Positions 2,076-23,755 of a stretch of 23,755 bases of DNA are shown in pieces. Below the pieces are notes generated by a model. That model did no database searches. It saw only the letters and a program-made list of their open reading frames with translations, and was not told the DNA's origin. Source of the DNA: a virus; the IMG/VR virus record IMGVR_UViG_3300050821_000723, positions 1 to 23,755 of that record; one strand, 5' to 3'. How positions within the stretch are numbered: position 1 is the stretch's first letter; each line of letters begins with the position of its first letter. Position numbers and translations under genes: made by a program.

Positions 2076-2369
2076 TTATTCCTTTTGGTCAGAGTCGAAT
2101 GCCAATAGCAGTTCATCATCAATCGCACTCAATATCATTTCATTCTCACGCTTCATGCGTGTCGTATCGATGTGGAGATAGATTAGAAAAGAGGGGAGGG
2201 AGATACCGAAGGCCACAAGCCATGCGATTGATGGAACATGGCCGAAGGCATGTGACACCAACATATAGATAAACGTTGCGACTGTTGCGATGCCAAGCGA
2301 AGACACGACAAGTAAACTGCGTGCGGCTTTGCGATCTGAGATGGCGAATAGTTCTTGGACGCGAGACAT
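2076..2369 (-). CDS. Two-helix membrane protein, possible holin
   Basis: A 97-residue product with a polar N-terminus (MSRVQELFAISDRKAAR), a first hydrophobic segment at about 18-39 (LLVVSSLGIATVATFIYMLV), a short loop containing His and Pro, and a second at about 48-66 (AWLVAFGISLPSFLIYLHI). A charged C-terminal tail ends in a cluster of acidic residues. Two transmembrane segments, under 100 residues and a charged tail fit class II holins, but also many other small phage membrane proteins. Translation starts at ATG 2367-2369 with GAGG 8 bases upstream. It follows the secreted JAMM-like gene after a 51-base gap, the longest in this part of the window. Confidence 0.65.
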   Translation of the reverse strand: MSRVQELFAISDRKAARSLLVVSSLGIATVATFIYMLVSHAFGHVPSIAWLVAFGISLPSFLIYLHIDTTRMKRENEMILSAIDDELLLAFDSDQKE

Positions 2370-2420: not shown

Positions 2421-3512
2421 TCAATCCTTAATTGTCAAATCTAACCAACCGATTAAACGACCACGTGTCATCACAAGTTTGGCACCATCAATCATTGGTT
2501 GGTAGTCATCGGCCTTGTCTACTCTATAATCGTAGACATACACATTACCCTTGCACATGTTCATCATGTACATATTGACACGATAGAATTGTCCTTCAGC
2601 CGTATCAGGCACACTGAAGTATCCATGAATGTAGTGAGGTGCACATGCGTGTGTGTGATAGGTACCAACGATATCCCATTCCTTATAGGCTGCGAATGGG
2701 AGCACAACCATGCCGGGACTATCACTGTTGAATGGAATCGTAATGTAATACTTATCATCTCGATGATCGTGTATTACTAATCCACCTGCCTCAAATGAGC
2801 GATTGAGTTTTGCTGATTGTTTTAGACCATCAATAGCAGCATCTTGCATCGTCTCATATGGGTGATCGGACAATGCTGGATGGGTATTATCTATCTCGAC
2901 TTCAAGTGTGATGTTTGGATGTATGGGTCTTCTCAGCTGATTGAATTTACCCCATATTGATTGTGGTGTAGGTGTAACAGGGAAGTGTCCAACAATACGA
3001 CCACCTGTAATATGAGCCACAGTAGCCTCACCACTAGCATCATCAATACCCTCAACGGAAACATCATTCGATACGTCTTTAGCTGGATTGAATTCGTGTA
3101 CATTCCCATTACACAAATCAGCCATGAAGCCTATGTCGTGAATGTGTTTGTTCCCTGCTACATCTGACGGTGAGAAATATTGAGGATAGTAGTGTGCATC
3201 ACACACATGTGTATGATAGTCGGCTACGAACTTGTAGCCTTCAATTCGAACCCACAATGGGACTTGAAGTCCACCAAGTTTGTTGTTTGTAATAGGTACG
3301 GTAATGGCGTATGAGTGGTCTTTGATACTCTGATAGATAAGACCACCATACTCCACTCTGGTTCCTAACATGTATGATTGTGAGAGAGCGTGTGTGGCTG
3401 CTTCCTCCAACGATTGATAGTGTTGCTTTTCTAAGAGTGGAACAATCTCTGAAATGGATGCACCGATACCAGTCGTGATGAGGAGTGCTGAGATGAGTAT
3501 TAGTAATCGCAT
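2421..3512 (-). CDS. Secreted tandem DUF4329/JAMM-like metallopeptidase-domain protein
   Basis: A 363-residue protein with an N-terminal signal peptide (MRLLILISALLITTGIGA; likely cleaved near residue 18-19), so export to the periplasm is expected. Two homologous domains follow, about 35-180 and 215-360. Domain 1 has Glu54 in EYGG, HTH at 100-102 and SPSD at 114-117. Domain 2 has Glu241 in EAGG, HTH at 286-288 and SVPD at 300-303. This E...HxH-x11-SxxD pattern is the JAMM zinc-peptidase signature, and the surrounding pattern (GG-I/V, YHTH, FSP.D, NGNV..F/YDP) matches DUF4329, known mainly from Rhs and polymorphic-toxin proteins. Each domain has a Cys pair exactly 30 residues apart (104/134, 290/320), possible disulfides. 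Family assignment is fairly sure; the substrate (isopeptide, peptidoglycan or other) is unknown. The start overlaps the upstream gene by 13 bases. Confidence 0.85.
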   Translation of the reverse strand: MRLLILISALLITTGIGASISEIVPLLEKQHYQSLEEAATHALSQSYMLGTRVEYGGLIYQSIKDHSYAITVPITNNKLGGLQVPLWVRIEGYKFVADYHTHVCDAHYYPQYFSPSDVAGNKHIHDIGFMADLCNGNVHEFNPAKDVSNDVSVEGIDDASGEATVAHITGGRIVGHFPVTPTPQSIWGKFNQLRRPIHPNITLEVEIDNTHPALSDHPYETMQDAAIDGLKQSAKLNRSFEAGGLVIHDHRDDKYYITIPFNSDSPGMVVLPFAAYKEWDIVGTYHTHACAPHYIHGYFSVPDTAEGQFYRVNMYMMNMCKGNVYVYDYRVDKADDYQPMIDGAKLVMTRGRLIGWLDLTIKD

Positions 3513-3712
3513 TGTTCTTGTTCCGTTACGCTGTACTGGATCATCTCTGCGCCGCGATCACGCAAGTAACACGTGAGCGTCCATTGTGCTTCTTCTCTGG
3601 TGTCATACATCTTTGAATGAACTAGACAACCGCACCAATGGGCATACTGATCCATGTATTCAGGTAATGATGTGCCTATGACTCTCTGCACTACGTAGAA
3701 TGTGTATCTCAT
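3500..3712 (-). CDS. Small hypothetical protein
   Basis: A 70-residue product starting at ATG 3710-3712 directly after the gp17 stop codon (TAA then ATG). It begins MRYTFYVVQRVIG and contains three cysteines in the middle part (Cys27, Cys29 and Cys48) with aromatic residues (HWCGCLVHSKMYDTREEAQW). The predicted order beta-beta-alpha-beta resembles small phage proteins with a single compact fold, but I recognise no family. It overlaps the signal-peptide region of the next gene by 13 bases, which suggests coupled translation. Confidence 0.65.
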   Translation of the reverse strand: MRYTFYVVQRVIGTSLPEYMDQYAHWCGCLVHSKMYDTREEAQWTLTCYLRDRGAEMIQYSVTEQEQCDY

Positions 3713-5515
3713 TTAACCTACTCCACCCCATCCATGCCATCCATTGTTGTCATCCACTCTCTGTGGTGTAACGTCGTCCCATATACAACCATCCATTATC
3801 ATCTTGCCCTGCTGTGTCGCCTGTAATGGTGCTGAGATGATTGGTAGTGGTGGCATCTGGGTCTCTAGTTCTTGCGAGCGTTGATCGAACAAACGTCTGC
3901 GCATATCTGAATTGGTTAGATCTTTCCAATACTGCTGTGTAGTGAGCCACGCAAAGATCCACATGCATGTGCACAAGTCGTCATAGCGTCCCTCTTCTGC
4001 GCTATACGTCTTGTTCTTCTTCGCAATGAATGATGAGAGTTCTTCGATACAATCGAAGTCATCAATGATCATCTGTTGACTCTCGACCAAAGTCTTCAGC
4101 GCCATACATCCTTGACGCTTGACCTTTGGTGATGTGCGAAGACCAGCAGTGTCACCGGTATTCTTCAACACAATCTGACGCTTCTGCTGCTCAGTGAATA
4201 GAATGTTCTCGTATTCTAGATCATTCTGAAGCAACGCGAAGACGTGTGTACCTACATCGTTGTTCTCACCGAACACCCATGCATCATTGTAATAGTTGGC
4301 CGCAGCCTTAATGACGTTGGGATACAGTTCGTATGGTGTGTCGTTGTGTTTGAACGTAGCCACCATACGGTAAGGGGCTTGTGTAATATCATAGATTATA
4401 AAAGCCGAATAGTCCAGTTCCTTACCGTAACTCGTATCAGCGATTAGAAGATATGGTGTGTTGGCCTTTGGTTCTTCGTAGATCTTGATCTTGTCATCAT
4501 AGATCTTCTTGATGGCTTCACGATAGGAAAGCGTACGCAGTATACGACCAGAGATTAGTGTGCCTTGTGAACCAAGGAACTCACACATATGTTCCTGCTC
4601 GAACTTATCACCAAGCACTGAACGTTCACGCTGTTCCCACAACTGATCACGCCATGGCACGGCACGCCAATCATACTCACGCAACACGAATCCATTCCAC
4701 TTAGCTGGGTCGGTGAATTGCTTACGCGCCTCATTGACCAACTTGTAGAATTTGTTCATGCCATTAGGTGTGCTAGTGACAATGACCTGTGTAGTCTGAC
4801 CTGATGAGATGGTTGGGAATACAGATGCGAAGAACTCATCTGCGATATGCGGTGGGACGTGGGCGAATTCATCAAGGTACAAACAATTGATGGCCCAGCC
4901 TCTGATTGCGCTTGATGATGTTGATGATGCTTTGACTGATGAACCATTCTCTAATGTAATACCAGTCTTGTTCCATTCAACCACACCCTGCTGCATCCAT
5001 AGTGGTAGGTTTGAATATGCAATACGCAGGCGTGAGAGAATTTCAATTGCAGTATCTTCTTTGTTAGCCAAGATACCGACACGCTTGTCAGAATGGAATA
5101 GGATGTACCAGAGGATATAACCAACAGCGACCGTGGTGGTCTTACCGATCTGTCTTGATGCGTTGAGAATGACGAATCTATTCTGCTGACAAGTGCTAAT
5201 CATCTCACTCTGTTTTGGATAGAGTTCGATGGGTATGAGACCGTAGTCAACGTTGACAATCTTGACCCACTTGGATACGAAATAGACCGCATCTTCTGAG
5301 CACTTCATGTACTCTTCAAGTTGCTTCTTGTTGAAATCGATGTTCTGACCCGGTGCCTTAAGCAATGGGTTGGAGAGATAACGCTTGATGGCAGCTTCCA
5401 TTGCCCTCTTGTGAGCAAGCTGCTCAGGCGTTAGTTTAGCCTTCTTATGTTGTGTCCCAATGTCAGAAGCATTAGGAGGAGTGTTAGGTGGCTGTACCAT
5501 TTGCTGATGGCTCAT
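3713..5515 (-). CDS. gp17: Terminase large subunit (T4 gp17-like packaging ATPase-nuclease)
   Basis: A 600-residue protein, close to T4 gp17 (610). It is the motor that pumps DNA into the prohead and cuts the concatemer. The N-terminal ATPase has Walker A SRQIGKTT at 120-127, Walker B CLYLDEFA at 211-218 (Asp215, catalytic Glu216) and coupling motif TSTPNG at 247-252. The C-terminal RNase H-like nuclease carries LLIADTSYGKELDYS (Asp360), GENND (Glu417) and GRYDDLCTCMWIFAWL (Asp512/513), the three acidic metal-binding positions of the family. The extreme N-terminus is Pro/Gln rich and the C-terminus Gly/Trp rich. The start overlaps gp16 by 32 bases; Met6 is a possible alternative start. Confidence 0.97.
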   Translation of the reverse strand: MSHQQMVQPPNTPPNASDIGTQHKKAKLTPEQLAHKRAMEAAIKRYLSNPLLKAPGQNIDFNKKQLEEYMKCSEDAVYFVSKWVKIVNVDYGLIPIELYPKQSEMISTCQQNRFVILNASRQIGKTTTVAVGYILWYILFHSDKRVGILANKEDTAIEILSRLRIAYSNLPLWMQQGVVEWNKTGITLENGSSVKASSTSSSAIRGWAINCLYLDEFAHVPPHIADEFFASVFPTISSGQTTQVIVTSTPNGMNKFYKLVNEARKQFTDPAKWNGFVLREYDWRAVPWRDQLWEQRERSVLGDKFEQEHMCEFLGSQGTLISGRILRTLSYREAIKKIYDDKIKIYEEPKANTPYLLIADTSYGKELDYSAFIIYDITQAPYRMVATFKHNDTPYELYPNVIKAAANYYNDAWVFGENNDVGTHVFALLQNDLEYENILFTEQQKRQIVLKNTGDTAGLRTSPKVKRQGCMALKTLVESQQMIIDDFDCIEELSSFIAKKNKTYSAEEGRYDDLCTCMWIFAWLTTQQYWKDLTNSDMRRRLFDQRSQELETQMPPLPIISAPLQATQQGKMIMDGCIWDDVTPQRVDDNNGWHGWGGVG

Positions 5516-6029
5516 CTTGGGTGAAGAACTCAGCGTCTGCTATCTCTGCTTCTTGGACGCGATCCTTACCCTTGATCAAATCAAGTAGTTGTGCATTAGT
5601 GCCGACGAAGACTGCATTGGCGATCTGCATTGGACCTGATGGTTTCAATGGAGTAGTACCTGTTATCTTCTGTCTGTCACTCTGGAGTTTCAACAGTTGT
5701 GCTGCTGCTTCTCTCTGTGTATTCAGTAACTGATTAAGAACCTCATATGCGCGGGGGGATTGAGACTGCTGTGCTACTGACATCAGTTCATCTATTGATA
5801 CACCTACTTTCTGAATGACATCGTATAGATTGTCACGCGCAAACTCAGCATCGTTAGCGACCTGATCTGGTTGATCTGTGCGGACGGCTGGGGTTAGGTG
5901 CTCTACTCTAGGAACGACTGGAGGTATAGGAGCAGATACAACCAACATTGGAGCGTTTGCGATTGGGGCATTTGAGATGCCAAGAATTGCAGCCACCTGA
6001 TCATTGATTTCATTATTCGCAGTACTCAT
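5484..6029 (-). CDS. gp16: Terminase small subunit (T4 gp16-like)
   Basis: A 181-residue protein immediately upstream of gp17. The central helical segment, about residues 68-120, reads DNLYDVIQKVGVSIDELM, then SPRAYEVLNQLLNTQ and AAAQLLKLQSDRQKI. The pattern of a long helix, the E/DHPRAYEVL-type motif and a coiled coil is the T4-family gp16 oligomerisation core. gp16 forms a ring that recognises DNA and regulates the gp17 ATPase. The N-terminal 60 residues are Ala/Pro/Val rich and probably disordered. Position and overlap with gp17 match T4 gene order. Confidence 0.9.
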   Translation of the reverse strand: MSTANNEINDQVAAILGISNAPIANAPMLVVSAPIPPVVPRVEHLTPAVRTDQPDQVANDAEFARDNLYDVIQKVGVSIDELMSVAQQSQSPRAYEVLNQLLNTQREAAAQLLKLQSDRQKITGTTPLKPSGPMQIANAVFVGTNAQLLDLIKGKDRVQEAEIADAEFFTQDEPSANGTAT

Positions 6030-6041
6030 GTAAGTTTAGCC

Positions 6042-7055
6042 TTATGTATTTGGTGTTTCCACAATTACAGTTGAGAAGCCGAAGTCATCACCAAGGTTTG
6101 CAGATGCAGGAACAATAGACGCCTCAATGATTGCCAGAGCCTTTGTGGTAGGCATGGTGGCGACATTCCACGATGCTGATGTCACTGCACCCTTGACGTT
6201 TGCGTTGACTGTGAACGTTCCTGATTGTTGGTATAGGGACAATAGATTCTTGGTTGCATCGAAGCCCTGTACATATCCAACAGCGGTAGCCTGTTGTAAT
6301 GATGGACCCTGATAGGCCACCTCACCAAGTTTGAATGAGTGGAAGCCGGGTCCAGTGAGTGTAAGTTGTAGGCTCTGTCCACTGGCCTGTGTGCCTGTGT
6401 AATACCAGAGGTTAGTATTAGCCTTAGTGATCAGACCACCCGACTGTGTTGGACCAAAGACATACGTCTGCATCGTGAATGTGAGTGACCACACCTCGCG
6501 GCGCATGGTCCAATCAGATGCACCCTCATTCTCAAGAGAGCGATTGATACCAGTCAATACGACCGGGATGTTCTTAGTGATGCCCAATTGATCGACAAAC
6601 ACCATCTTCAGTGTGTATTCTGGTGTGAAATATGGAATGATCTGTTCTACGATCTGACAGCCATCTTCAGTGTTTCGTACGTAGATCTGTAATTCAAAGT
6701 CCATGTTATATGGAACTGGTACGAACTGAGCATTGAGACCACTAGCAATACCAGAGGCAGCGAACTGCTGGAGTTGTGATTGCTGTTTGCGTGATGCATC
6801 GTAATAGAAGTTCGTCATGCGGAACATCATACGTGGCAATGGTAGATCTGTTGGAAGAGGGAATACCTTGGCTGCCTTCAAACGAATGAAGTAGTCTTCC
6901 TTATCACCATAGATCAATGGCACACGCACACGCTTGAGTTCAGTGCGTGCGTCATCGTTGGTATAGGTAACCAATTGAAGATCCTTGAACATCGTGCCAA
7001 ATGACACAATGTTACGACGGATAGTGCGATAGTAGAATTGCTGGCCTGATAGCAT
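6042..7055 (-). CDS. gp15: Proximal tail sheath stabilisation / tail completion protein (T4 gp15-like)
   Basis: A 337-residue protein whose N-terminal half has the gp15 pattern: FYYRTIRRNIVSFGTMF at 7-23, KRVRVPLIYGDKEDYFIRL, LPLPRMMFRMTNFYYDASRK, then a middle section with VPYNMDFELQIYVRNTEDG and VEQIIPYFTPEYTLKM. In T4, gp15 forms the hexameric terminator that caps the tail tube and sheath and joins the neck. T4 gp15 is 272 residues; the extra length lies in the C-terminal part, about residues 215-330, where LGEVAYQGPSLQQATAVGYV introduces a small beta-rich insertion also seen in gp14 here. The start overlaps the gp14 stop (TAATG). Confidence 0.88.
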   Translation of the reverse strand: MLSGQQFYYRTIRRNIVSFGTMFKDLQLVTYTNDDARTELKRVRVPLIYGDKEDYFIRLKAAKVFPLPTDLPLPRMMFRMTNFYYDASRKQQSQLQQFAASGIASGLNAQFVPVPYNMDFELQIYVRNTEDGCQIVEQIIPYFTPEYTLKMVFVDQLGITKNIPVVLTGINRSLENEGASDWTMRREVWSLTFTMQTYVFGPTQSGGLITKANTNLWYYTGTQASGQSLQLTLTGPGFHSFKLGEVAYQGPSLQQATAVGYVQGFDATKNLLSLYQQSGTFTVNANVKGAVTSASWNVATMPTTKALAIIEASIVPASANLGDDFGFSTVIVETPNT

Positions 7056-7918
7056 TACTGTTGTGGATCACCGAATGGGTTACTTGGATCAAACACTAGG
7101 ATCTCATCAGCTGCATTAGCCAACGTCTGATTGTCATCCAATTGATCATTGATATTGTCACGGATGTTCAGTGTGGTAATGATATAGACTGCGCCGCTGT
7201 TAGCACCAGTGACGTGCTCACCAACACCAAATGTACCGGTCATAGATTTGACACTAAGTGTGCCTGATGGCTTGTTCCACGTTAGAACTGTGCCAGTCGC
7301 GTGGGTGGTGTTACCTGTGATCTTCTCACCTATCGTATAGGTGCCACTGAATGTATTAGCCGCAGTGTTCATGGTCAACTGATAACCAATCACAATGGTA
7401 TTGATTGTACTGTCGATCTGGGTGATACCTGTGTTGACCGTTGCTTGATCGTAATTCCATTTCTCACAGACTAATGAATAGCCGTAGATATCTTCCTTGC
7501 CGAATGTGTAAAACAAATGCTCTTCGTCTGCCTTCTTGATCTCAAAGAATGCCTTGAAGTTCTGTAGCCATAGGATATCACCTTCACGTGGGCGACCAAA
7601 TCCTGCTGGCATACGTATGTTGAATAAACGGGTTGGGACTAGAAAGCGAGCCTGTTTGCGTACCTCAAGACCAAACTTACTGATAGCTTCGAAACCTTCA
7701 AACTGATCCACAGTCTGGATGTACATCGTGACTGGGTATGCTTGGTTGAACATCTTCGCAGGATCATCACCAAGAAGCGTGTCGAAGTTGGTTAGACTTG
7801 AACGCACCATATAGTGGGCTTCAATACCAAAGAAACCAACAGCCTCGTTGATGAGGCTTTCGTACATGCGGCTGTCTGGATTGTTCGTTATGAACCAATC
7901 TGTGTACTTGCTGGCCAT
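7055..7918 (-). CDS. gp14: Neck protein (T4 gp14-like)
   Basis: A 287-residue protein. Recognisable gp14 elements are FDTLLGDDPAKMFNQAY with an aromatic beta strand after it (TMYIQTVDQFEGF), ISKFGLEVRKQARFLV, RPREGDILWLQNFKAFFEI and HLFYTFGKEDIYGYSLVCEK. In T4 gp14 joins gp13 in the head-tail neck that seals the portal after packaging. The C-terminal region, about 190-255, holds a beta-rich insertion (YTIGEKITGNTTHATGTVL through FGVGEHVTGANSGAVYI) that resembles domains recurring in aquatic phage structural proteins. The C-terminus (FDPSNPFGDPQQ) is typical of the family. The order gp13-gp14-gp15 is T4-like. Confidence 0.9.
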   Translation of the reverse strand: MASKYTDWFITNNPDSRMYESLINEAVGFFGIEAHYMVRSSLTNFDTLLGDDPAKMFNQAYPVTMYIQTVDQFEGFEAISKFGLEVRKQARFLVPTRLFNIRMPAGFGRPREGDILWLQNFKAFFEIKKADEEHLFYTFGKEDIYGYSLVCEKWNYDQATVNTGITQIDSTINTIVIGYQLTMNTAANTFSGTYTIGEKITGNTTHATGTVLTWNKPSGTLSVKSMTGTFGVGEHVTGANSGAVYIITTLNIRDNINDQLDDNQTLANAADEILVFDPSNPFGDPQQ

Positions 7919-11167: not shown

Positions 11168-14100
11168 TTATCCGATGCGAGTGAGGGTCATGTAAGAGTT
11201 AGATGAGAGATTCGTGGTGTTGGCGTTAGACACAACCTGCGCAAACATTGGAATGAATGTGCCAGTGGTGTTCAAGGTTACAGTCCCCTTACACAACACA
11301 AAGTCTCCACCTTGAATAGTGGCATAGGTGAGAATGTTTGAGCCATTAGTGGCAAAGGTTCCAAATCCACCAAAAACAGATCCTCCATTGATGACGGCAA
11401 GTTGCATATAGGAAAAGGCATTCTGTGTAGCAGTGCCACCCCAACTTATCTTAATACCTTGCGCACCGTGGATGGTGTTACCATTGCCACTAGAGATAGC
11501 AAGTAAAGCCTCAAGTTTATATGTGCCAGTTGTATTGATGGTCATTGATAGGTTGTTTTCGAACGTCAATGCGGTCGTGGATTGGCGAACTGAGTTGCCT
11601 GTCATAGTTGCGGACATACCAGCAAATGCACGCTGCTGTGTATTAGTGGTTACTGCTGAGCCTGCAATGATGTTGCCACTGACTGTTTGGAGGTCACTCG
11701 TTGCCACCGCGACGCCCGATGCACTCAGGTTTCCCGTGCTGACATTCTGTGTAACGCTTAGATTGCCAGTGCTAGTATTCTGAGTGACGCTAAGGTTGCC
11801 GGTGCTGGTATTCTGTGGCGTACTGATGTTACCAGCCACCAAATTGGCTGCCGTGTTGATAGTCGCTGAGACGTTGATGTTTCCGGTGATAGCGACATTG
11901 GCAAAAATGTTGACAGTAGCGTTGTTACCGCTAATATTGATCCTCTCAGAACCATCGGCTCTGATTGACCAAGCGGTATTACCACCGATTGCCTGAGTGG
12001 TATCAAGAATCGCTACACCATTACCAACCTCAAGGTAGGCAATGGCACCAGTCTGCGTGCTGTCTTCGACTCGAATAACAGCATTGGCACCTTTGAGAAG
12101 GATATCACCTGCGCCAGCAGCACCATGACCACCAACGCTCAATGCGGTTCCTGTGGTCTTGAAGATTAGATTTGGATCGCCAGCCAGTGAGCCATTGAGA
12201 TTGAACTGTATCTGTTGATTGGCACCAGCAGCGAATCCACCATTGGCGAGGTTCATGCCAATGAACTCACGAATCTCTATCAGATCATTGAGTAAAGTGT
12301 TGCTGGTGAATGTTAGAGTCTGTCCTGCGAGGGTATAGTCAGTCGTCGGTGCTTGCTCAAGTCCATTGCGGAACACCATCACATAGTTGACGTTGGCTGG
12401 TGATAGAACGTTATTCAACGTGAAGGCTGTCTGGTTGGCGGTTGATGTGAACTGCTCATTGAGAATGACTGATGGCTGCTGTGTGTTGGCAGCAATGAAC
12501 TCACGAACATCAATCACGTCATTAGTCACCGAGTTCGCTGAGAGAGTTAGAACTTGACCAGTAAGGGTATAGTGAGTGGTTGGTTCAAGCAGAATACCAT
12601 TACGACTGACCAGTAAGTAGTTGACATTGGCTGGTGCCAATGGATTGACCAACGTAAAGGCTGTCTGGTTGGCAGTGGCTACAAAGTTCTCTTCGGCAAT
12701 GACCGATGTTAGATTACTATAGATGTTGGGGCTAAGCGCAAACTGCTCTATACGCAGATTGGCAACGTTCCAAGTATCTGGTGCCCCAGCATCAATCCTG
12801 AGACCAATGTACATGTTGGTATCGGCTGGGTTATCTGCCTGATAGTACCAAGGGAAGCTGGCATTGTAGTTACCAACCACGCTATTAGCCATCAAGAATG
12901 TTGTACCACTGATACTTGGACTTCCAGATACCAAGATATCATACTGTGCTGCGCCATTGCTGGAACTGATATTGAAGATGGATACCAATCCCTTGCCTAT
13001 GCTTGGGACAGTATAGAAAGTATATGCGCTGTTGACTGTTGTCTGAGTGCCCAATGAAACAGCATTCACATAGTAGTCGTTGATAGATGATATAACATTC
13101 AACAAAGAAGCTACGTTGGCTTGAAAAGAAATGTTGGCCTGTGATGTCCCATTGGCAGTCACGAAGACGTTCATGGTTGACGTGTTGTTGAAGTTCAGGT
13201 TGGAATCAGCAAGAACCAATGTTCCATTGGCAAATACAGCAACAGTGTTGGCTGCTGCTCTCGCGGTGACCAACGCAGCCTGTGCCTGCGCATTGGCCAG
13301 ATATACATAACCAAGTGCAGTCTGTGCAACAAGATTGGCAGTGTTGGCTTGAAGGTATGCAGCATTGGTGTTGGCTGCGAATGGACCAACGATAGATGTT
13401 ATGTTCGCTGACCACGCCACGTTGCTCTGTGTGCCGTTGGCAGTCACAGACACATTCATCGTAGCCGTATTGTTCCAATTGATGTTGGAGGTATTGGCGA
13501 CTACACTGGTGCCATTGGCATAGGTGCCTTGAGTGTTGGCCTGAGCGTACGCTGCATTTGCTTCAGCATAGGCTGCGTTAGCATTGGCCGCAAACGGACC
13601 CACGATGGCCGTAATGTTCGCAGTGAATGCCACATTACCTTGTGAACCATTCGCTGATGTCGCTACGTTGACCGTGGCTGTATTATTGAAGTTGATGCTG
13701 GTAGCGTTGGCAACCGTTACGGTTCCATTGGAATCGATGGCGAAGTTGTTGGCACGGGCATAAGCGGCATTTGCTTCAGCATAGGCAGCCTCACCTATTA
13801 CAATAGCGGCCTGAGCGTCAGTCTCGGCTGTATTAGCCTGCGTATAAGCGGCGTTCGCCTGAGCGTAGGCGGCATTGGCCTGATCGTACGCGGGGCCTGC
13901 TATGGCGCTCTGGTTGGCTGTGAACGCAATGTTGGCTGTGGTGTTCCCCTGAACCCCCACAACCGTGACGTTTACGGTCGAAGTGTTATTAAAGTTGAGG
14001 TTGGCCGCACTATTAACATTGTAGTGGGCATTGGCAGCAACGTTAATACTTCCACCGCCACCGCCCGTGCTATCAAAGAAGACATTGACGCGACCATTGG

Positions 14101-14419
14101 CATAGTCGTCGGTGACCTTGAGTATTACATTAGTGCCATTGCTGAAGTCGATGGTGCTGGTACTGTTAACCATCACGTTGTTGTTCTGAATGACGACCTG
14201 ACCACCACCCAATGGTGCCCACGACGCAATGAATCCCTCGAACCCTGAAGTATTAGAGTTAAAGCGGATCATGCCCTTACCGCCTGCTGGACGCTGACCA
14301 GTGGTTCCTACAGGTAGAGCGAGTGCATCGGTAGCATGCGACGCATCAATGGTCACATTGGCGTTTGTGTTCGCGCCAAATGTAGTACCTGATGGTGTGA
14401 ATGCAATGCCTTTAGCCAT
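11168..14419 (-). CDS. Long tail fibre (1083 aa) with repeats and C-terminal knob-like domain
   Basis: The N-terminus (about 1-100) is Ala/Asn/Thr rich. The next 300 residues contain repeated ANAAYAQANAAY-type Ala/Asn/Tyr helical or coiled segments alternating with NFNNTATVNV-type beta segments. About residues 570-720 contain two tandem copies of a domain with TANQTAFTL, then NVNYLLVSRNG or NVNYVMVFRNG, then HYTLTGQVLTL or DYTLAGQTLTF, a domain widely found in phage fibres. Downstream are NTSTGNLSVTQ repeats, and a C-terminal domain (about 935-1083) ends NSYMTLTRIG and is paralogous to two neighbouring proteins. Likely a trimeric host-recognition fibre. A late-promoter motif lies 28 bases before the start. 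Confidence 0.85.
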   Translation of the reverse strand: MAKGIAFTPSGTTFGANTNANVTIDASHATDALALPVGTTGQRPAGGKGMIRFNSNTSGFEGFIASWAPLGGGQVVIQNNNVMVNSTSTIDFSNGTNVILKVTDDYANGRVNVFFDSTGGGGGSINVAANAHYNVNSAANLNFNNTSTVNVTVVGVQGNTTANIAFTANQSAIAGPAYDQANAAYAQANAAYTQANTAETDAQAAIVIGEAAYAEANAAYARANNFAIDSNGTVTVANATSINFNNTATVNVATSANGSQGNVAFTANITAIVGPFAANANAAYAEANAAYAQANTQGTYANGTSVVANTSNINWNNTATMNVSVTANGTQSNVAWSANITSIVGPFAANTNAAYLQANTANLVAQTALGYVYLANAQAQAALVTARAAANTVAVFANGTLVLADSNLNFNNTSTMNVFVTANGTSQANISFQANVASLLNVISSINDYYVNAVSLGTQTTVNSAYTFYTVPSIGKGLVSIFNISSSNGAAQYDILVSGSPSISGTTFLMANSVVGNYNASFPWYYQADNPADTNMYIGLRIDAGAPDTWNVANLRIEQFALSPNIYSNLTSVIAEENFVATANQTAFTLVNPLAPANVNYLLVSRNGILLEPTTHYTLTGQVLTLSANSVTNDVIDVREFIAANTQQPSVILNEQFTSTANQTAFTLNNVLSPANVNYVMVFRNGLEQAPTTDYTLAGQTLTFTSNTLLNDLIEIREFIGMNLANGGFAAGANQQIQFNLNGSLAGDPNLIFKTTGTALSVGGHGAAGAGDILLKGANAVIRVEDSTQTGAIAYLEVGNGVAILDTTQAIGGNTAWSIRADGSERINISGNNATVNIFANVAITGNINVSATINTAANLVAGNISTPQNTSTGNLSVTQNTSTGNLSVTQNVSTGNLSASGVAVATSDLQTVSGNIIAGSAVTTNTQQRAFAGMSATMTGNSVRQSTTALTFENNLSMTINTTGTYKLEALLAISSGNGNTIHGAQGIKISWGGTATQNAFSYMQLAVINGGSVFGGFGTFATNGSNILTYATIQGGDFVLCKGTVTLNTTGTFIPMFAQVVSNANTTNLSSNSYMTLTRIG
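12258..12706 (-). repeat. Two tandem copies of a fibre beta domain inside the 1083-aa fibre
   Basis: The two copies, about 210 bases each (approximately 12495-12706 and 12258-12465), encode near-identical domain layouts: F-x-A/S-TANQTAFTL...NVNY..V.RNG....PTT.YTL.GQ.LTL...D.I.+REF. They differ at many third-codon positions, so the duplication is not very recent. Confidence 0.75.
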
Positions 14420-16854: not shown

Positions 16855-19800
16855 TTAGACCCCTGAGTAATAAGAATACCAAACTGGATTGGTTTGAATT
16901 GCTAGTGTGGCTGTCATCCAAGCATTAGCTGCCAAGCCCAATGCCACATTTGCCGACGTATTGGCTATATTTAGGGAAACTAATTGGCTGACGTATGCTA
17001 GGTTGGCCAGTTCATATGCCGCATTGGCTTTGAGGGAAACTGCCGTTACACCAAGTGCTGTAGCATTGACAGATAGGGCTACGTTGGCCTGAGTAGTACC
17101 GTTGGCTGTCACAGAGACATTTACAGTTGCTGTGTTGTTGAAATTAACGTTGGCGTTGGTGACTGTTACGGTGCCGTTGGCTAGGACATCGACCTGATAG
17201 TTATTACCATCACCAGCACCACCACCAGCCAAACGTGTATCAATGACCACGTTGCCGTTGGCATTGTAGGTAACGTTAATGTTGGATGTGTTACCAGATA
17301 CCACCCCAAGGAGGATGGCCGCAGCATTAACAACCAGTGCTATATTGCTCTGTGTTCCATTGGCGCTTGAGGATATGTTGACGGTAGCTGTGTTATTGAA
17401 GTTGACATTAGCAATGTTCGCAACCACGACGGTGCCGTTCGCACAGACTGCTTGACTATTAGCATAGATCACCGCCTGTGTTGCGCGAATGAATCCAAGA
17501 TTGGCCAGTTCATATGCAGCATTGGCCTTAAGTGTTGCGCTATTTGCGATAGCATCATTAGTGTTACCAGCAGCTAATGCGGTATTGATGGCACTGAAGT
17601 TAGCGTTGATCGTTCCTAGCGAAGTGTTGATGGTGCTGAACGTTGTGTTAACAGTTCCAAAGGTCGTATTGGTTGTGCTGAAGGCACTATTATCTGCACT
17701 CAGAGCAGAATTGATACCGCCAAAGTTGGCGTTGATCGTTCCTAAGGAGGTGTTGATTGTGCCAAAGGTTGTGTTGGTTGTGCTGAAACTAGTGTTGATG
17801 TTTGGCATCTGGAGCACGGCACCAGTTCCCAAGATGAATCCAAGATTGGCCAGTTCATAGGCAGCGTTGGCTTTGACCGATGCGGCAGGCACACCAAGTG
17901 CTGTAGCATTAGCGCTGAGGGCAACATTGCCTTGTGTGGATCCATTGGCAGTGACAGATACATTAACGGTTGCAGTGTTGTTGAAGTTGACGTTGGCATT
18001 CGTGACTACCACACTACCATTAGCGAGGATATCTGCTTCGTAGTTATTACCATCACCAGCACCACCACCAGCCAAACGTGTATCGATGACCACATTGCCG
18101 TTGGCATTGTAGGTGACATTGATGTTGGATGTGTTACCTGAAACAATACCTAGAAGGACGGCGGCAGCATTCACCACAATCGCAGCATTAGTCTGACTAC
18201 CATTTGCCGTGATAGAGACATTAGTCATTGCTGTGTTGTTGAAGTTGATATTTGCTACATTACCGACCACCACTGTGCCGTTGGCATAGGTGCCCTGAGA
18301 ATTAGCATATATGATTGCTTGTGTTGCCTTGATGAAACCAAGGTTCGCTAGTTCGTAAGCGGCATTGGCCTTGATAGAAGCCACGTTAGCCTGAGCATTG
18401 GCTGTGGTGATTGACGTGTTCAGTGTGCCGAAGGTCGTATTGATGGTGCTGAACGTTGTGTTCACGGTTCCGAAAGTGGTGTTGGTTGTGCTGAAGGCAC
18501 TGTTGTCCGCTGACAGAGCGCTATTGATACCACCAAAGTTCGCATTGATCGTTCCTAAGGAGGTATTGATCGTGCCAAAGGTCGTATTATGGGTGCTGAA
18601 ACTAGTATTGACATTAGGCATCTGTAGTACAGCACCAGTACCCAAGATGAATCCAAGGTTCGCTAGTTCGTAAGCGGCATTGGCCTTAATCGATGCAACA
18701 TTTGCTTGCGCATTAGATGTCGTGATGGCAGCATTGAGGGTACTGAATGTAGCGTTGATAGTACCGAACGTCGTGTTAACTGTACTGAAGGTCGTATTGG
18801 TTGTGCTGAAGGCACTGTTGTCTGCTGATAGTGCGGAGTTGATACCACCAAAGTTCGCATTGATCGTTCCGAGTGAGGTGTTAATCGTGGTGAATGTTGA
18901 GTTCAGTGTACCAAAGGTTGTGTTGGTTGTACTGAAACTGGTATTAACATTAGGCATCTGTAGTACAGCACCAGTACCCAAGATGAATCCAAGATTGGCC
19001 AATTCATATGCAGCATTGACCTTGATAGAAACAACATTACTTGAGGTCTGCGCAGAATTCGCAGCCGTATAGGCTAGGTTGGCTTGATTGTACGCAAGGT
19101 TAGCATTGAGGAATGCTTGCGTGCCGATCACGAAGCCTTGGTTGGCTAACTGATATGATATGTTGGCCTTGAGGTAGGCGGAATTAGCCTGTGCGTAAGC
19201 GGCTGCTGGATTACCACCACTAGCAACCAAAGCAGTATCAATGATGACGTTGGTAGAATTGCCGCTGATGACTAGATTTGATGAGTTAGCAGAAGAGACA
19301 TTCAACACTGCCATGTTAGCTAAGGCATAGATGGTGTTGGCTTCTGTCTGTGCACTATTAGCTGCTGTGTAGGCAAGGTTGGCATTGATGAACGCCTGTG
19401 TTCCGATGACAAAACCTTGGTTAGCAAGTGCATAGGATGCATTGGCTTTAAGGGATGTCGCCGTCGCATTAGTGTTCAGTGAGGCAAAGGTGCTGTTGAT
19501 CGTAGCGAAGGTACTATTGTCTGTGCTGAAGGTGCTGTTGATCGTAGCGAAAGTAGAATTGATCGTACCGAAGTTGGTGTTGTCTGCACTCAGAGCAGAA
19601 TTGATACCGCCAAAGTTGGCGTTGATCGTTCCTAGACTTGTATTGATCGTTGGAATTGCGATGGTGGCAGCGGTGCCCAATACAAATCCAAGGTTCGCTA
19701 GTTCGTAAGCGGCATTGGCCTTGATAGATGCGTTGCTAGTAAAGGCATTCGCGGTGGCAAATGTGGAATTGATGGTGCTGAACGTTGTGTTCGTTGTTGT

Positions 19801-20400
19801 ATCGTTGGTGTTGCCTGCTGACAATGCACTGTTGATGGCAGCAAAGTTGGTATTGTCGGCAGCGAGTGCGGTATTGATACCAGTGAAGTTGGCATTGATC
19901 GTGCCGAAGGTTGTGTTGTGGGTGCTGAAGGTTGAGTTGATGGTACCGAAGTTACCATTCATGGTGCCAGTGGCTACGAGGGCGCTCTGAGCTACTGTGT
20001 TGGCTGTATTGGCCTGTGCGTAGGCCGCTAGAGCGTTAGCATTGGCAGCGTCAAATGCCCATTGAACAGCATTCGCGGTTGCTGCATTACTAGTATCACC
20101 AGAACTGATGCTATCTACTAGTTTAGTGACACCCTGCACAGATGTCGTTGCTAGGTTAGCTGAGATCGTGCCGGTGACGTGGATAGGGCCACCGGTCAGA
20201 CCAAGGCCAGTGGCTACATTGGTGACGGTGCCTAGAGATGAAAGATTATTGAAGAGATTGATAACACCATTGGCGGTATCACCAATGAACAAGGTGTTAG
20301 AGACATAGCTGAATGCTATTTCACCGGGCTGAAGATTACTAGGCGCAGCCGTGACAGCACTGCGATTGATCTGAATCGTAATGTTGTTTGTGTTGGCCAC
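16855..20400 (-). CDS. Giant repeat-rich tail fibre (1181 aa)
   Basis: The N-terminus (about 6-55: ITIQINRSAVTAAPSNL, LQPGEIAFSYVSNTLFIGD) matches a head or baseplate attachment motif common in T4-like aquatic phages. The rest is repeats: nine copies of a NAAYELANLGF-like Ala/Asn/Tyr/Leu segment, separated by NTTFSTINTTFGTIN-type Thr/Asn/Phe runs and NFNNTATVNVSVTANG beta segments. Three copies carry the LGTGAVLQMPN variant. The C-terminus ends VWYSYYSGV without an evident knob. Extended, probably trimeric, coiled and beta-helical fibre. The start is GTG at 20398-20400, with GGAAG upstream, two bases after the previous stop. Confidence 0.85.
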   Translation of the reverse strand: MANTNNITIQINRSAVTAAPSNLQPGEIAFSYVSNTLFIGDTANGVINLFNNLSSLGTVTNVATGLGLTGGPIHVTGTISANLATTSVQGVTKLVDSISSGDTSNAATANAVQWAFDAANANALAAYAQANTANTVAQSALVATGTMNGNFGTINSTFSTHNTTFGTINANFTGINTALAADNTNFAAINSALSAGNTNDTTTNTTFSTINSTFATANAFTSNASIKANAAYELANLGFVLGTAATIAIPTINTSLGTINANFGGINSALSADNTNFGTINSTFATINSTFSTDNSTFATINSTFASLNTNATATSLKANASYALANQGFVIGTQAFINANLAYTAANSAQTEANTIYALANMAVLNVSSANSSNLVISGNSTNVIIDTALVASGGNPAAAYAQANSAYLKANISYQLANQGFVIGTQAFLNANLAYNQANLAYTAANSAQTSSNVVSIKVNAAYELANLGFILGTGAVLQMPNVNTSFSTTNTTFGTLNSTFTTINTSLGTINANFGGINSALSADNSAFSTTNTTFSTVNTTFGTINATFSTLNAAITTSNAQANVASIKANAAYELANLGFILGTGAVLQMPNVNTSFSTHNTTFGTINTSLGTINANFGGINSALSADNSAFSTTNTTFGTVNTTFSTINTTFGTLNTSITTANAQANVASIKANAAYELANLGFIKATQAIIYANSQGTYANGTVVVGNVANINFNNTAMTNVSITANGSQTNAAIVVNAAAVLLGIVSGNTSNINVTYNANGNVVIDTRLAGGGAGDGNNYEADILANGSVVVTNANVNFNNTATVNVSVTANGSTQGNVALSANATALGVPAASVKANAAYELANLGFILGTGAVLQMPNINTSFSTTNTTFGTINTSLGTINANFGGINSALSADNSAFSTTNTTFGTVNTTFSTINTSLGTINANFSAINTALAAGNTNDAIANSATLKANAAYELANLGFIRATQAVIYANSQAVCANGTVVVANIANVNFNNTATVNISSSANGTQSNIALVVNAAAILLGVVSGNTSNINVTYNANGNVVIDTRLAGGGAGDGNNYQVDVLANGTVTVTNANVNFNNTATVNVSVTANGTTQANVALSVNATALGVTAVSLKANAAYELANLAYVSQLVSLNIANTSANVALGLAANAWMTATLAIQTNPVWYSYYSGV
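16990..18675 (-). repeat. Long in-frame tandem duplication within the giant fibre gene
   Basis: Equivalent landmarks in two copies, the GGCATCT sequence at 17804 and 18617, are 813 bases (271 codons) apart. Each copy encodes the same order: QMPN segment, TF/ST repeats, the I-K/R-ATQA-I/V-IYANSQ segment, NVNFNNTA, SGNTSNINVTYNANG and RLAGGGAGDGNNY. A third QMPN landmark at 18953 is 336 bases (112 codons) away, so smaller duplications are nested in it. Boundaries are approximate. Confidence 0.75.
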
Positions 20401-21005: not shown

Positions 21006-21013
21006 TATTTATC
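21006..21013 (-). promoter_or_regulatory. Probable late promoter core (GATAAATA) for the fibre cassette
   Basis: Minus-strand GATAAATA overlaps the TAA stop of the dioxygenase gene and lies 37 bases before the start of the small beta-sandwich gene. It matches the NATAAATA late core found at three other junctions in this window. Confidence 0.58.
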
Positions 21014-21593
21014 TAAAACTTGGTCCCCCCGTCCAGATAACAAGAGAGCGGCGAGTACCAGCCGTGACTGGGGTGACACGATGCAAGATCCATGATGGGA
21101 ATGCTACCACTAGGCCCTTAGTCTTCGCCATGGGGACTGGGGTGTTACCGGTCTGTAATTCTAGAACCCCACCCTCATACTCACTAGGATCAGATAATTG
21201 GACCGTAAGTGATAACTTGCGGGGCATGTCATTGACGATCCCCTTATCTACGTGCCAAGTATAATGGTCGTTGTTGCCAGTGTAAACCGTGTACTGGAAC
21301 GGTTCACCAAAACCTGTAAGATCGAAGTTGAAGAACTGACCATTCAACTGACGAACGATCCAACCCACCTTATCGTAGAGCCACACGTTGTCTTGGTTGT
21401 TTGGTAGCCAAGAGACTGTACTCTGACGAATAGCAGCATCAACTTCATTAGCATTGACGGTGCCGGGGGTTTGAGAGGTCAGTTCACCTTGGACAAGGAT
21501 ACGAGCGATCTCAGATTCACTGAAACCATTCTCCCACGTGGCGAAGGTTTGTTCCTTGGTTGATAGGTCTGGGCTTGCTGCTAGAAAGTACAT
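21009..21593 (-). CDS. 2-oxoglutarate/Fe(II)-dependent dioxygenase (PKHD-type hydroxylase-like)
   Basis: A 194-residue protein with the double-stranded beta-helix signature: His114-Val-Asp116 (HxD iron ligands in YTWHVDKG), the distal His171 in SWILHRVTPV, and Arg181/182 in GTRRSLVIWTGG for 2-oxoglutarate binding. YEGGVLEL and LVVAFPSWILH are typical framing strands. Such enzymes hydroxylate proteins or other substrates and are common in T4-like aquatic phages, often close to virion genes. The substrate is unknown; modification of virion or fibre proteins is a possibility from context only. Confidence 0.9.
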   Translation of the reverse strand: MYFLAASPDLSTKEQTFATWENGFSESEIARILVQGELTSQTPGTVNANEVDAAIRQSTVSWLPNNQDNVWLYDKVGWIVRQLNGQFFNFDLTGFGEPFQYTVYTGNNDHYTWHVDKGIVNDMPRKLSLTVQLSDPSEYEGGVLELQTGNTPVPMAKTKGLVVAFPSWILHRVTPVTAGTRRSLVIWTGGPSFR

Positions 21594-21624: not shown

Positions 21625-22359
21625 TTACTTTGGTTGACGTAGCGTGTCGCGATATAGACTCTCTTGTGAGGTTCTACGACGACGGGTATGTTCGATCAAT
21701 TGGGTATCTTCGCTGCTCAGCGAATCTATCTTGATCTTATGAGATGATGCTACGACACCATCACGATTGATAGGGATGCACTGGACTAATGGAGTGCCAG
21801 CCTTGATGATTCCACTATACTTGGGTTGTTTGAAGAAGAAAGGAAAGTTGACGTACTCAAATGCATCCTGACCCATATAGGTATCATCTACCATACCAGC
21901 AATACACTCGAACCTTGGTTCATAACGGTTGAGGGGTGGCACGAAGAGCATACTGTATCCTTTGGGCATCTTGATTGCCCAATGGTTGATCCATTTCCAT
22001 GGTTGCTCTGGGAGTATTGGATGACCGGCCACCTGTGCATGTGAATGAGTCTGTACCATGCTGCGCGCGAATAGGGACTTAGTAGTGATGTTACCGTCCT
22101 TATCCGTGGCAAATTCAACATCAGCAGCAAGAGGAATGATCCAACCAAGATTCAATGCATCCAAGAATGGCATGCAACGCTTGATGGTGCTGTTCTCTAG
22201 TCTCTGTTCGTTGTTGATCTTAGGAGGAAGTTTCTTGAACCATTCAGGCATCAACTTGCGTGCTGGGTATGGCTCTGGGATGACACCGACATCATCCTTA
22301 ACACAAAGAAACTGTACTTCAGTTGGCTTGCGGATTGCGGTTAATATTCGCTTGATCAT
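21625..22359 (-). CDS. Conserved phage protein of unknown function
   Basis: A 244-residue protein with VIPEPYPARKLMPEWFKKLP near residues 26-45, TIKRCMPFLDALNLGWIIPL at 58-77, DVEFATDKDG, WAIKMPKGYSMLFVPPLNRY, GMVDDTYMG and IIKAGTPLVQCIPINRD. I recognise this motif order (P-x-P..K..P.W...LP, KxCxPFxDxLxxG, PxGYSxLFxxPLNR, I.KGTP..Q.IP) as a family seen in T4-like marine phages, often near 2OG dioxygenases; the role is not known. ATG at 22357-22359 is preceded by GAAGG and overlaps the end of the upstream gene by 41 bases. Confidence 0.78.
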   Translation of the reverse strand: MIKRILTAIRKPTEVQFLCVKDDVGVIPEPYPARKLMPEWFKKLPPKINNEQRLENSTIKRCMPFLDALNLGWIIPLAADVEFATDKDGNITTKSLFARSMVQTHSHAQVAGHPILPEQPWKWINHWAIKMPKGYSMLFVPPLNRYEPRFECIAGMVDDTYMGQDAFEYVNFPFFFKQPKYSGIIKAGTPLVQCIPINRDGVVASSHKIKIDSLSSEDTQLIEHTRRRRTSQESLYRDTLRQPK

Positions 22360-22511: not shown

Positions 22512-23755
22512 TTATACACCTTCTACCAATCCAACGGAAGACTGGCCCTGATTTGCCCATTGAATAGTCATACCAGCAGATGTGGTGATGGTCACTTGAC
22601 CCCCCTTAGAGACGTTGCTTTGGATACGAGTCTTGGTGTTGCCGGGTGTGGCGTTGTTACCTGAGTTTCCGGGATTGCCGTTGTTTGCGCCAGTGCCTGC
22701 GTTACCTGCATTGCCAGTTGCGCCAGCATTACCGTTTGATCCGTCCTGTCCACCCCATGTATTTGGAGCAGCACCACCGGCTGAACCATTAGTTGCGCCA
22801 CTGCCGGTAGCACCAGCGTTACCGTTGCCACCAACCGCTGAACCACCACCGCCACCACCGCCCGGTGTTGTGACATTGTTTGGTGAACCATCCGGGACGC
22901 CACCGATACCACCGCCGCCACCTGATGGATTACCACCAGCAGGATGAACGTTAGCATTAGCCGTTCCAACAGCACCAGCGTTTCCTCCACTGCCAGCGTT
23001 ACCTTTGTTGCCACCAGCGTTGACGATACCGCCGCCACCGCCGCCACCGCCGTTACCACCAGCAGCACCACCATTTCCGTGGGTACCGGGATTACCTGCC
23101 GCACCACCACCACCGCCAGTACCACCGGGACCACCAGAACCATTGGTTCCTGCGTTACCTGCGTTACCTGCACCGCCAGTGTTGCCGGGGTTACCGGCTG
23201 CTCCACCAGTACCGCCATTACCAGCTGTACCGCCGTTGAATGAAACTGGAACGACTACCACCGCAGATGCAGTTGCTATGGATGCTGCTGCTCCGGGAGT
23301 ACCAGCGTTACCATTGTTACCATTGGCACCAGTGCCACCTCCACTACCCGGTGATCCTGCGTTACCGTTGGTTGCACCTGAACCTGCCCCACCAGTATTA
23401 CCCGCCGCACCAGTGTTACCATTAGCGCCAGCTGGCGTTCCAGTACCTACATTGCCAGCCGCTCCGGGTGAACCTGCATTACCGGGGCCACCTGCACCAC
23501 CTGAGTTACCAGAGACGCCGCCGTTACCATCCAGATTACCAGACGAGTTACCGGGTAGACCAGCACCACCTGCGCTACCGGGAAATGGTCCATTAGGATT
23601 ACCACCGGGGCCACCACCACCACCGCCGCCACCACCGGGTGAACCTGCATTGCCGGGGTTACCGGCTGGGCCATTCGTACCAGCATTACCAGTTGAGCCA
23701 GCATTACCTTTGTTGCCGGGGTTGCCTGCTGTTCCTGAATTTCCACCGGGACTAC
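22512..23755 (-). CDS. Partial very glycine-rich virion or adhesin-like protein (C-terminal 413 residues)
   Basis: The minus-strand frame is open from the right edge to TAA at 22512-22514; I checked the extension codon by codon from 23262 to about 23580 and by composition beyond. It is almost entirely Gly with Asn, Ala, Ser, Thr and Pro in GNAGNAG-like runs and Gly5-8 tracts. A non-Gly island near 23235-23290 (AAASIATASAVVVVPVSFNG) splits the Gly-rich region. The C-terminus, RIQSNVSKGGQVTITTS followed by AGMTIQWANQGQ, is a normal beta-like tail. Gly-rich segments of this type form polyglycine II sandwiches in some T4-like adhesins (for example S16 gp38); that fold is an inference. The start is outside the window. 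Confidence 0.8.
   Translation of the reverse strand, partial: SPGGNSGTAGNPGNKGNAGSTGNAGTNGPAGNPGNAGSPGGGGGGGGGPGGNPNGPFPGSAGGAGLPGNSSGNLDGNGGVSGNSGGAGGPGNAGSPGAAGNVGTGTPAGANGNTGAAGNTGGAGSGATNGNAGSPGSGGGTGANGNNGNAGTPGAAASIATASAVVVVPVSFNGGTAGNGGTGGAAGNPGNTGGAGNAGNAGTNGSGGPGGTGGGGGAAGNPGTHGNGGAAGGNGGGGGGGGIVNAGGNKGNAGSGGNAGAVGTANANVHPAGGNPSGGGGGIGGVPDGSPNNVTTPGGGGGGGSAVGGNGNAGATGSGATNGSAGGAAPNTWGGQDGSNGNAGATGNAGNAGTGANNGNPGNSGNNATPGNTKTRIQSNVSKGGQVTITTSAGMTIQWANQGQSSVGLVEGV

What the first reader, a model, noticed from the sequence alone, without database searches (positions are those of the whole stretch)
2421..3512. Secreted phage protein with two intact DUF4329/JAMM metallopeptidase domains in tandem
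Sequence: a signal peptide followed by two homologous domains, each with Glu in E-x-GG, HTH, then SxxD exactly 12 residues from the second His to the Ser, and a Cys pair 30 residues apart. Known: JAMM enzymes cleave isopeptide bonds, and DUF4329 is mostly seen in Rhs/polymorphic-toxin proteins. Inference: a phage-encoded exported JAMM duplex at the T4 packaging locus could act on periplasmic targets (envelope proteins, peptidoglycan cross-links, a toxin-immunity or superinfection-exclusion function). Two intact sites argue that both are selected. I know of no described T4-like phage system of this type.
Basis: partly seen in the sequence, partly recalled or inferred. Interest (0 to 1): 0.78.

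Follow-up and report, generated by a model that had tools for sequence, protein, structure and literature searches.

The report
Exported twin JAMM-fold phage enzyme
An uncultivated T4-like phage carries, right after its DNA-packaging gene, a protein built for export from the bacterial cytoplasm with two intact copies of a zinc-peptidase-like (JAMM) domain; relatives with one copy turn up in other unstudied phages, so it looks like a little-known way for phages to act on the host cell envelope, though the target is unknown.

Summary
Window 2421-3512 (-) encodes 363 aa: an N-terminal signal sequence and two DUF4329 (PF14220) domains, each with ExGG, HTH, SxxD and a Cys pair 30 residues apart. 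Pfam E = 9e-10, above cut-off; each half alone 1e-4. AlphaFold2 models of both halves (pLDDT 89 and 85) match JAMM/MPN structures. The window is a fragment of a T4-like phage. In 14 of 14 inspected relatives gp17 is followed directly by gp18; here a small-gene island with this gene follows gp17. I found 14 further uncultivated viral contigs with a single-domain version having the same Cys pair; every one with a readable N-terminus has an export signal. Most lie in packaging or virion modules, several touching terminase genes. None was found in cultured phages, and only an Rhs protein in bacteria, by the searches available. Secreted phage DUF4329 was noted in 2012 (Xanthomonas phage OP1, PMC3482391), so the kind is known; the tandem, the Cys-pair clade and the packaging-module setting are the new parts. 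Best guess: a late, exported zinc amidase/isopeptidase acting on the host envelope, probably lysis-related. Fold and export are well supported; catalysis, substrate and role are inferred.

The parts
2421..3512 (-). Gene for the exported tandem DUF4329/JAMM protein (363 aa)
   Evidence: ORF and translation; Pfam PF14220 E 9e-10 with two stretches
3456..3512 (-). N-terminal signal sequence, about residues 1-19 (MRLLILISALLITTGIGAS)
   Evidence: Hydropathy 2.13 over residues 3-21; export signals also present in the relatives with readable N-termini
2985..3419 (-). Domain 1 (about residues 32-176): E54, H100, H102, S114, D117; Cys pair C104/C134
   Evidence: Alignments; AlphaFold2 pLDDT 89, pTM 0.85; Foldseek and VIA matches JAMM/MPN at the top
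2442..2864 (-). Domain 2 (about residues 217-357): E241, H286, H288, S300, D303; Cys pair C290/C320
   Evidence: Alignments; AlphaFold2 pLDDT 85, pTM 0.78; VIA Z 8.8 to an archaeal Rpn11 homologue
3500..3712 (-). Small ORF (70 aa) between gp17 and the DUF4329 gene, no family
3713..5515 (-). gp17-like terminase large subunit (upstream neighbour)
   Evidence: PF03237 E 4e-22, PF17289 E 4e-9; about 45% identity to marine T4-like cyanophages
5484..6029 (-). gp16-like terminase small subunit
   Evidence: PF11053 E 1e-6; phrog_445 E 1e-23
2076..2369 (-). Downstream small protein with two hydrophobic segments; only a very weak holin-family match, not counted
   Evidence: phrog_4237 E 0.088; hydropathy

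Best explanation
It is a phage-encoded exported protein of the DUF4329 branch of the JAMM/JAB superfamily, with two fused, apparently intact catalytic domains. Proposed course: made late in infection with the packaging genes (inferred from position); exported by Sec (inferred from the signal sequence); the Cys pair near each metal site forms a disulfide in the oxidising periplasm (inferred); each domain binds zinc through His-His-Asp with Glu as base (inferred from motif and fold); the enzyme then hydrolyses an amide or isopeptide-type bond in the envelope, most likely a peptide cross-link of peptidoglycan or the link between outer-membrane lipoprotein and peptidoglycan, helping lysis or release. 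Shown: sequence family, predicted JAMM fold in both halves, intact motif, export-type N-terminus, late-module location. Identity as an exported JAMM-fold protein: about 0.9. The lysis-related envelope role: about 0.35, which is the confidence given.
For: Family and fold. Catalytic E, H, H, S, D kept in every relative that covers them. Readable N-termini of the Cys-type relatives carry a signal peptide, a membrane anchor or, in G051, a lipobox (LVAGC), whereas the one copy without a signal (G052b) lacks both cysteines. Location: in the window 200 bp from gp17; in G055 and G059 the gene overlaps the terminase large-subunit gene by 4 bp; in G049, G051, G052, G054 and G057 it lies within 1.5 kb of a terminase gene. 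Five of seven lineages within 1.5 kb gave P about 2.5e-4 in a random-placement test, with the threshold chosen after seeing the data. Precedent for an exported lysis protein in that spot: in T7-like phages the Rz/Rz1 spanin gene 18.5 lies between the terminase genes (PMC4283147). It sits after gp17 where gp18 is found in 14 of 14 relatives.
Against: No recognised holin, endolysin or spanin gene was identified beside it in any locus. In G056, G050, L136 and L139 the gene is not close to a recognised terminase gene, and no terminase was found in G053. The two loci found last (L136, L139) fell among virion genes, so the terminase link is weaker than first computed. T4-like phages normally lyse with other genes. 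No substrate, metal or activity evidence. Zhang et al. suspected nuclease rather than peptidase activity for this clade.
Confidence: 0.35

Rival explanations
1. Superinfection-exclusion or receptor-clipping protein: a periplasmic protease that cleaves an envelope receptor or an incoming phage's injected protein, protecting the infected cell.
For: Exported enzyme-like protein carried as an accessory insert between otherwise adjacent structural genes; patchy distribution across unrelated phages.
Against: Placement in late packaging or virion modules is late for an exclusion function; no defence-family hit.
Confidence: 0.15
2. Secreted effector or virulence-type moron, as suggested by Zhang et al. 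2012 for the OP1-type proteins, acting outside the infected cell or on a eukaryote or rival, possibly as a nuclease.
For: Same Pfam domain as Rhs/T6SS toxins; secreted phage versions were proposed as virulence factors.
Against: No Rhs, PAAR or other toxin-delivery part and no immunity partner recognised; most copies sit in phage late modules; only one distant bacterial Rhs relative found.
Confidence: 0.17
3. Exported zinc or peptide binder rather than an enzyme: the JAMM fold is used to hold a ligand, and the two domains form a fixed pair.
For: HTH-to-Ser spacing X11 is not the textbook X7; no solved DUF4329 relative to confirm catalysis.
Against: Glu, both His, Ser and Asp are kept in both halves and in all relatives that cover them, unlike the degenerate MPN- partners of known JAMM pairs.
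Confidence: 0.13
4. Peptidase needed for assembly or maturation of phage structural proteins, encoded with them.
For: Location among head, packaging and virion genes in most loci; lambda-type tail genes include a JAB domain.
Against: A signal peptide, lipobox or membrane anchor in the relatives argues against work in the cytoplasm, where virions assemble.
Confidence: 0.08

Closest known systems
DUF4329 / Tox-JAB-2 (Pfam PF14220), including the secreted version in Xanthomonas phage OP1 (Zhang et al. 2012, PMC3482391)
   Same: Same Pfam domain, same E, H[ST]H, S, D set; secreted phage versions already noted
   Different: Two fused domains, a conserved Cys pair, a T4-like genome and a gp17-side location; no Rhs or immunity parts. 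The OP1 record was not in the collections, so it was not compared.
JAMM/MPN+ metallopeptidases (PfJAMM1, archaeal Rpn11 homologue, AMSH, BRCC36)
   Same: Predicted fold of both halves, VIA Z 9.2 and 8.8; E, HxH and SxxD in the same order
   Different: Spacing HxH-X11-S instead of X7; exported; no ubiquitin-like partner seen; about 10-20% identity
JAB domain of lambda-type tail protein K (JAB + NlpC/P60; PMC1779556)
   Same: A phage JAB-superfamily domain in a late module
   Different: Tail-assembly protein fused to NlpC/P60 and linked to a ubiquitin-like protein; not an exported stand-alone protein
T7-type Rz/Rz1 spanin (gene 18.5, between terminase genes; PMC4283147)
   Same: Exported late protein encoded between or beside terminase genes
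   Different: Unrelated sequence and fold; spanins are not enzymes. A likeness of position only
PHROG 33532 (unknown function)
   Same: Weak matches from the window protein and several relatives, E 5e-4 to 5e-3
   Different: Members not identified here; function unknown

Membership tests
DUF4329 / Tox-JAB-2 (PF14220) | Profile match above the curated cut-off | tested here: met
   Whole protein 39.0 bits against 28.6; each half alone about 22.7 bits, below cut-off but E 1e-4
DUF4329 / Tox-JAB-2 (PF14220) | Residues E, H[ST]H, S, D as described by Zhang et al. | tested here: met
   Both halves
Polymorphic toxin of the Tox-JAB-2 type | C-terminal toxin position after Rhs, PAAR or other delivery parts, with an immunity gene | tested here: not met
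   The protein is only signal sequence plus two domains; neighbours in the window match no immunity or defence family in the scans made
JAMM/MPN+ metallopeptidase superfamily | JAMM fold | tested here: met
   Predicted models of both halves; top structural matches are JAMM/MPN
JAMM/MPN+ metallopeptidase superfamily | E-Xn-H[ST]H-X7-SxxD spacing (PMC300881 abstract) | tested here: not met
   All elements present, but the gap is X11 in both halves
JAMM/MPN+ metallopeptidase superfamily | Bound zinc and hydrolytic activity | not testable with these tools
   Needs purified protein
Exported protein | Signal peptide | tested here: met
   Hydrophobic N-terminus with short positive start; no trained signal-peptide predictor available
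Phage spanin or endolysin | Match to a known spanin or endolysin family | tested here: not met
   No such family hit for the window protein or the relatives scanned, beyond a trivial signal-peptide match at E 0.077

The most novel reading that the evidence does not exclude
A class of unstudied phage envelope hydrolases built on the JAMM fold: disulfide-stabilised, exported zinc isopeptidases that cut peptidoglycan cross-links or lipoprotein-peptidoglycan links late in infection, here doubled in one protein. It would be a lysis factor of a fold not known to be used for this.
Probability: 0.25. Interest if true: 0.8.

Novelty: new variant of a known kind. Interest (0 to 1): 0.55.

Why it matters
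If the envelope role is right, phages use the ubiquitin-removing enzyme fold on the bacterial cell wall or its tethers, a new lysis chemistry with a clear test. Even without that, it defines a Cys-containing exported DUF4329 clade in diverse uncultivated phages, often beside the terminase genes, and offers a small two-site protein for testing what DUF4329 does, for which I found no solved structure and no demonstrated activity.

Tried and rejected
Exact 8-residue pattern scans with the protein or its two halves found nothing. tblastn against cultured phages and plasmids gave no relatives; the weak Aeromonas phage ZPAH34 hit lies in a protein without the HTH motif and was rejected. The genome search with PF14220 rang nowhere, not even in the window's own record, so its zero counts are not evidence of absence. 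Xanthomonas OP1 and Xp10 records were not in the collections. Four of the five first motif hits were chance, and L102 among the second set was also chance. Solved-structure sequence searches gave no confident relative. Promoter, terminator and T4 late-promoter scans were no better than shuffles. PADLOC gave nothing. A lysis cassette around the gene was looked for by hydropathy in ten loci; small membrane proteins occur near some but not consistently. The tree could not settle whether the two halves are each other's closest kin (long branches). Coordinates of the models were not readable, so the metal-site geometry was not measured.

Full report
What is there. The ORF at 2421-3512 on the minus strand encodes 363 residues. 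Pfam finds DUF4329 (PF14220) at E 9e-10, above its cut-off, in two stretches; each half alone gives E 1e-4. The two halves are about 30% identical and share ExGG, YHTHxC, YFSxxD and CxGN. The residues are E54, H100, H102, C104, S114, D117, C134 in half 1 and E241, H286, H288, C290, S300, D303, C320 in half 2. The first 19 residues form a hydrophobic segment of signal-peptide type.

Fold. With an alignment of relatives found here, AlphaFold2 gave confident models of half 1 (pLDDT 89, pTM 0.85) and half 2 (pLDDT 85, pTM 0.78). Foldseek on half 1 lists JAMM/MPN proteins at the top, led by P. furiosus JAMM1 at probability 0.99, although its E-values are modest, best 0.003. The VIA second look gives Z 9.2 (rmsd 3.2, 111 aligned) for half 1 to PfJAMM1 and Z 8.8 (rmsd 3.8, 114 aligned) for half 2 to an archaeal Rpn11 homologue; the listed rows are JAMM/MPN-type chains plus the related RadC. 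Secondary structure places E before a strand, HTH at a strand end and SxxD at a helix start, as in JAMM proteins. Atomic coordinates could not be read, so the metal site was not measured. The spacing between HTH and Ser is X11, not the X7 of the classic motif.

Where it is. The record is a 23,755-base uncultivated virus fragment of a T4-like phage: gp17 at 3713-5515, with gp16, gp15 and neck genes upstream. The terminase is about 45% identical to marine T4-like cyanophages and up to about 52% to uncultivated relatives. In 14 of 14 relatives inspected, the gene after gp17 is the tail-sheath gene gp18, recognised by its start sequence, not by a profile; the same holds in cyanophage S-H9-2 apart from one small ORF. 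In the window gp17 is followed instead by small genes including this one, up to the end of the contig. So it is an insertion or rearrangement at a normally fixed junction. None of 80 terminase-neighbour loci carries a relative by tblastn or motif.

Relatives. DNA motif scans of IMG/VR and profile-guided scans gave 14 further contigs with a single-domain relative of the same Cys type: G048 to G059, L136 and L139. P0003 from G048 aligns with both halves of the window protein at E 3e-18 and 4e-16. In the 16-row alignment every catalytic residue covered is kept; both cysteines are present in the 14 Cys-type rows and both are absent in the other two, G052b and G056b. The Cys-type relatives with a readable N-terminus have an export signal; G051 has a lipobox. 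G052b has no signal; G056b is exported without the Cys pair. G056 therefore holds two exported DUF4329 genes, a second case of doubling, unfused. Only one bacterial hit came from the one genome scan, the C-terminus of an Rhs protein of Breznakiella. No cultured phage hit was found by tblastn. These searches need close motif or word matches, so absence is not proven.

Neighbourhood. Terminase genes next to the relatives were confirmed by PHROGs. The gene overlaps the large-subunit gene in G055 and G059, and lies within 1.5 kb of a terminase gene in the window, G049, G051, G052, G054 and G057. It is 10-16 kb away in G050 and G056; no terminase was detected in G053. In a random-placement test, 5 of 7 lineages within 1.5 kb has P about 2.5e-4, with the threshold set after looking. 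Two loci found afterwards (L136, L139) lie among virion genes but not within 1.5 kb of a recognised terminase, so the sounder statement is that the gene usually sits in the late packaging or virion module.

Mechanism. Late module plus export plus a metallopeptidase-type fold points to work on the host envelope. In T7-like phages the exported Rz/Rz1 lysis gene sits between the terminase genes (PMC4283147), a precedent of position only. JAMM enzymes cut amide bonds to lysine side chains; the peptidoglycan cross-link and the lipoprotein-peptidoglycan link are chemically similar (established knowledge plus inference). I therefore favour a lysis-stage envelope hydrolase at about 0.35, with exclusion, secreted-effector or nuclease, binder and assembly roles as rivals. 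Nothing here shows activity.

Known or new. Zhang et al. 2012 named this clade Tox-JAB-2, listed Caudovirales among its holders, described secreted versions in Xanthomonas phage OP1 and NCLDVs as possible virulence factors, and leaned towards nuclease activity (PMC3482391). Salmonella T6SS work lists Rhs-DUF4329 as a candidate RNase (PMC10469887). The new elements are the fused tandem, the Cys-pair exported clade in uncultivated phages, and the packaging-module setting, including a T4-like phage. I class it as a new variant of a known kind.

Noticed in passing
window 16855-20400 and 11168-14419: Very long, highly repetitive proteins (runs such as TTFGTINTSLGTINANF and NAAYAEANAAYAQAN), probably tail fibres; only a marginal PHROG match.
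   Followed up: no
window 22512-23261: Glycine/asparagine-rich, collagen-like low-complexity protein without a PHROG match.
   Followed up: no
window 21009-21593 and 21625-22359: 2OG-Fe(II) oxygenase (phrog_61, E 7e-34) next to a conserved protein of unknown function (phrog_7084, E 4e-53).
   Followed up: no
window 6042-7055 and 7055-7918: The C-terminal part of the gp15-like protein matches a neck-protein family (phrog_460), and that of the neck protein a tail-fibre family (phrog_9851), suggesting a shared added domain.
   Followed up: no
L123:7479-8195 and 11910-12383 (G056): Two separate exported DUF4329 genes in one phage, one with and one without the Cys pair, both with intact catalytic motifs.
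   Followed up: partly
L119:15233-15649 (G052): A second DUF4329 protein without signal peptide or Cys pair, near a primase/helicase-like gene.
   Followed up: partly
L139:13204-15048: Terminase-like protein that seems to carry an intein-like insertion after its Walker-A-like motif (read by eye).
   Followed up: no
L126:1285-3005: Terminase large-subunit homology is split over two overlapping ORFs in different frames.
   Followed up: no
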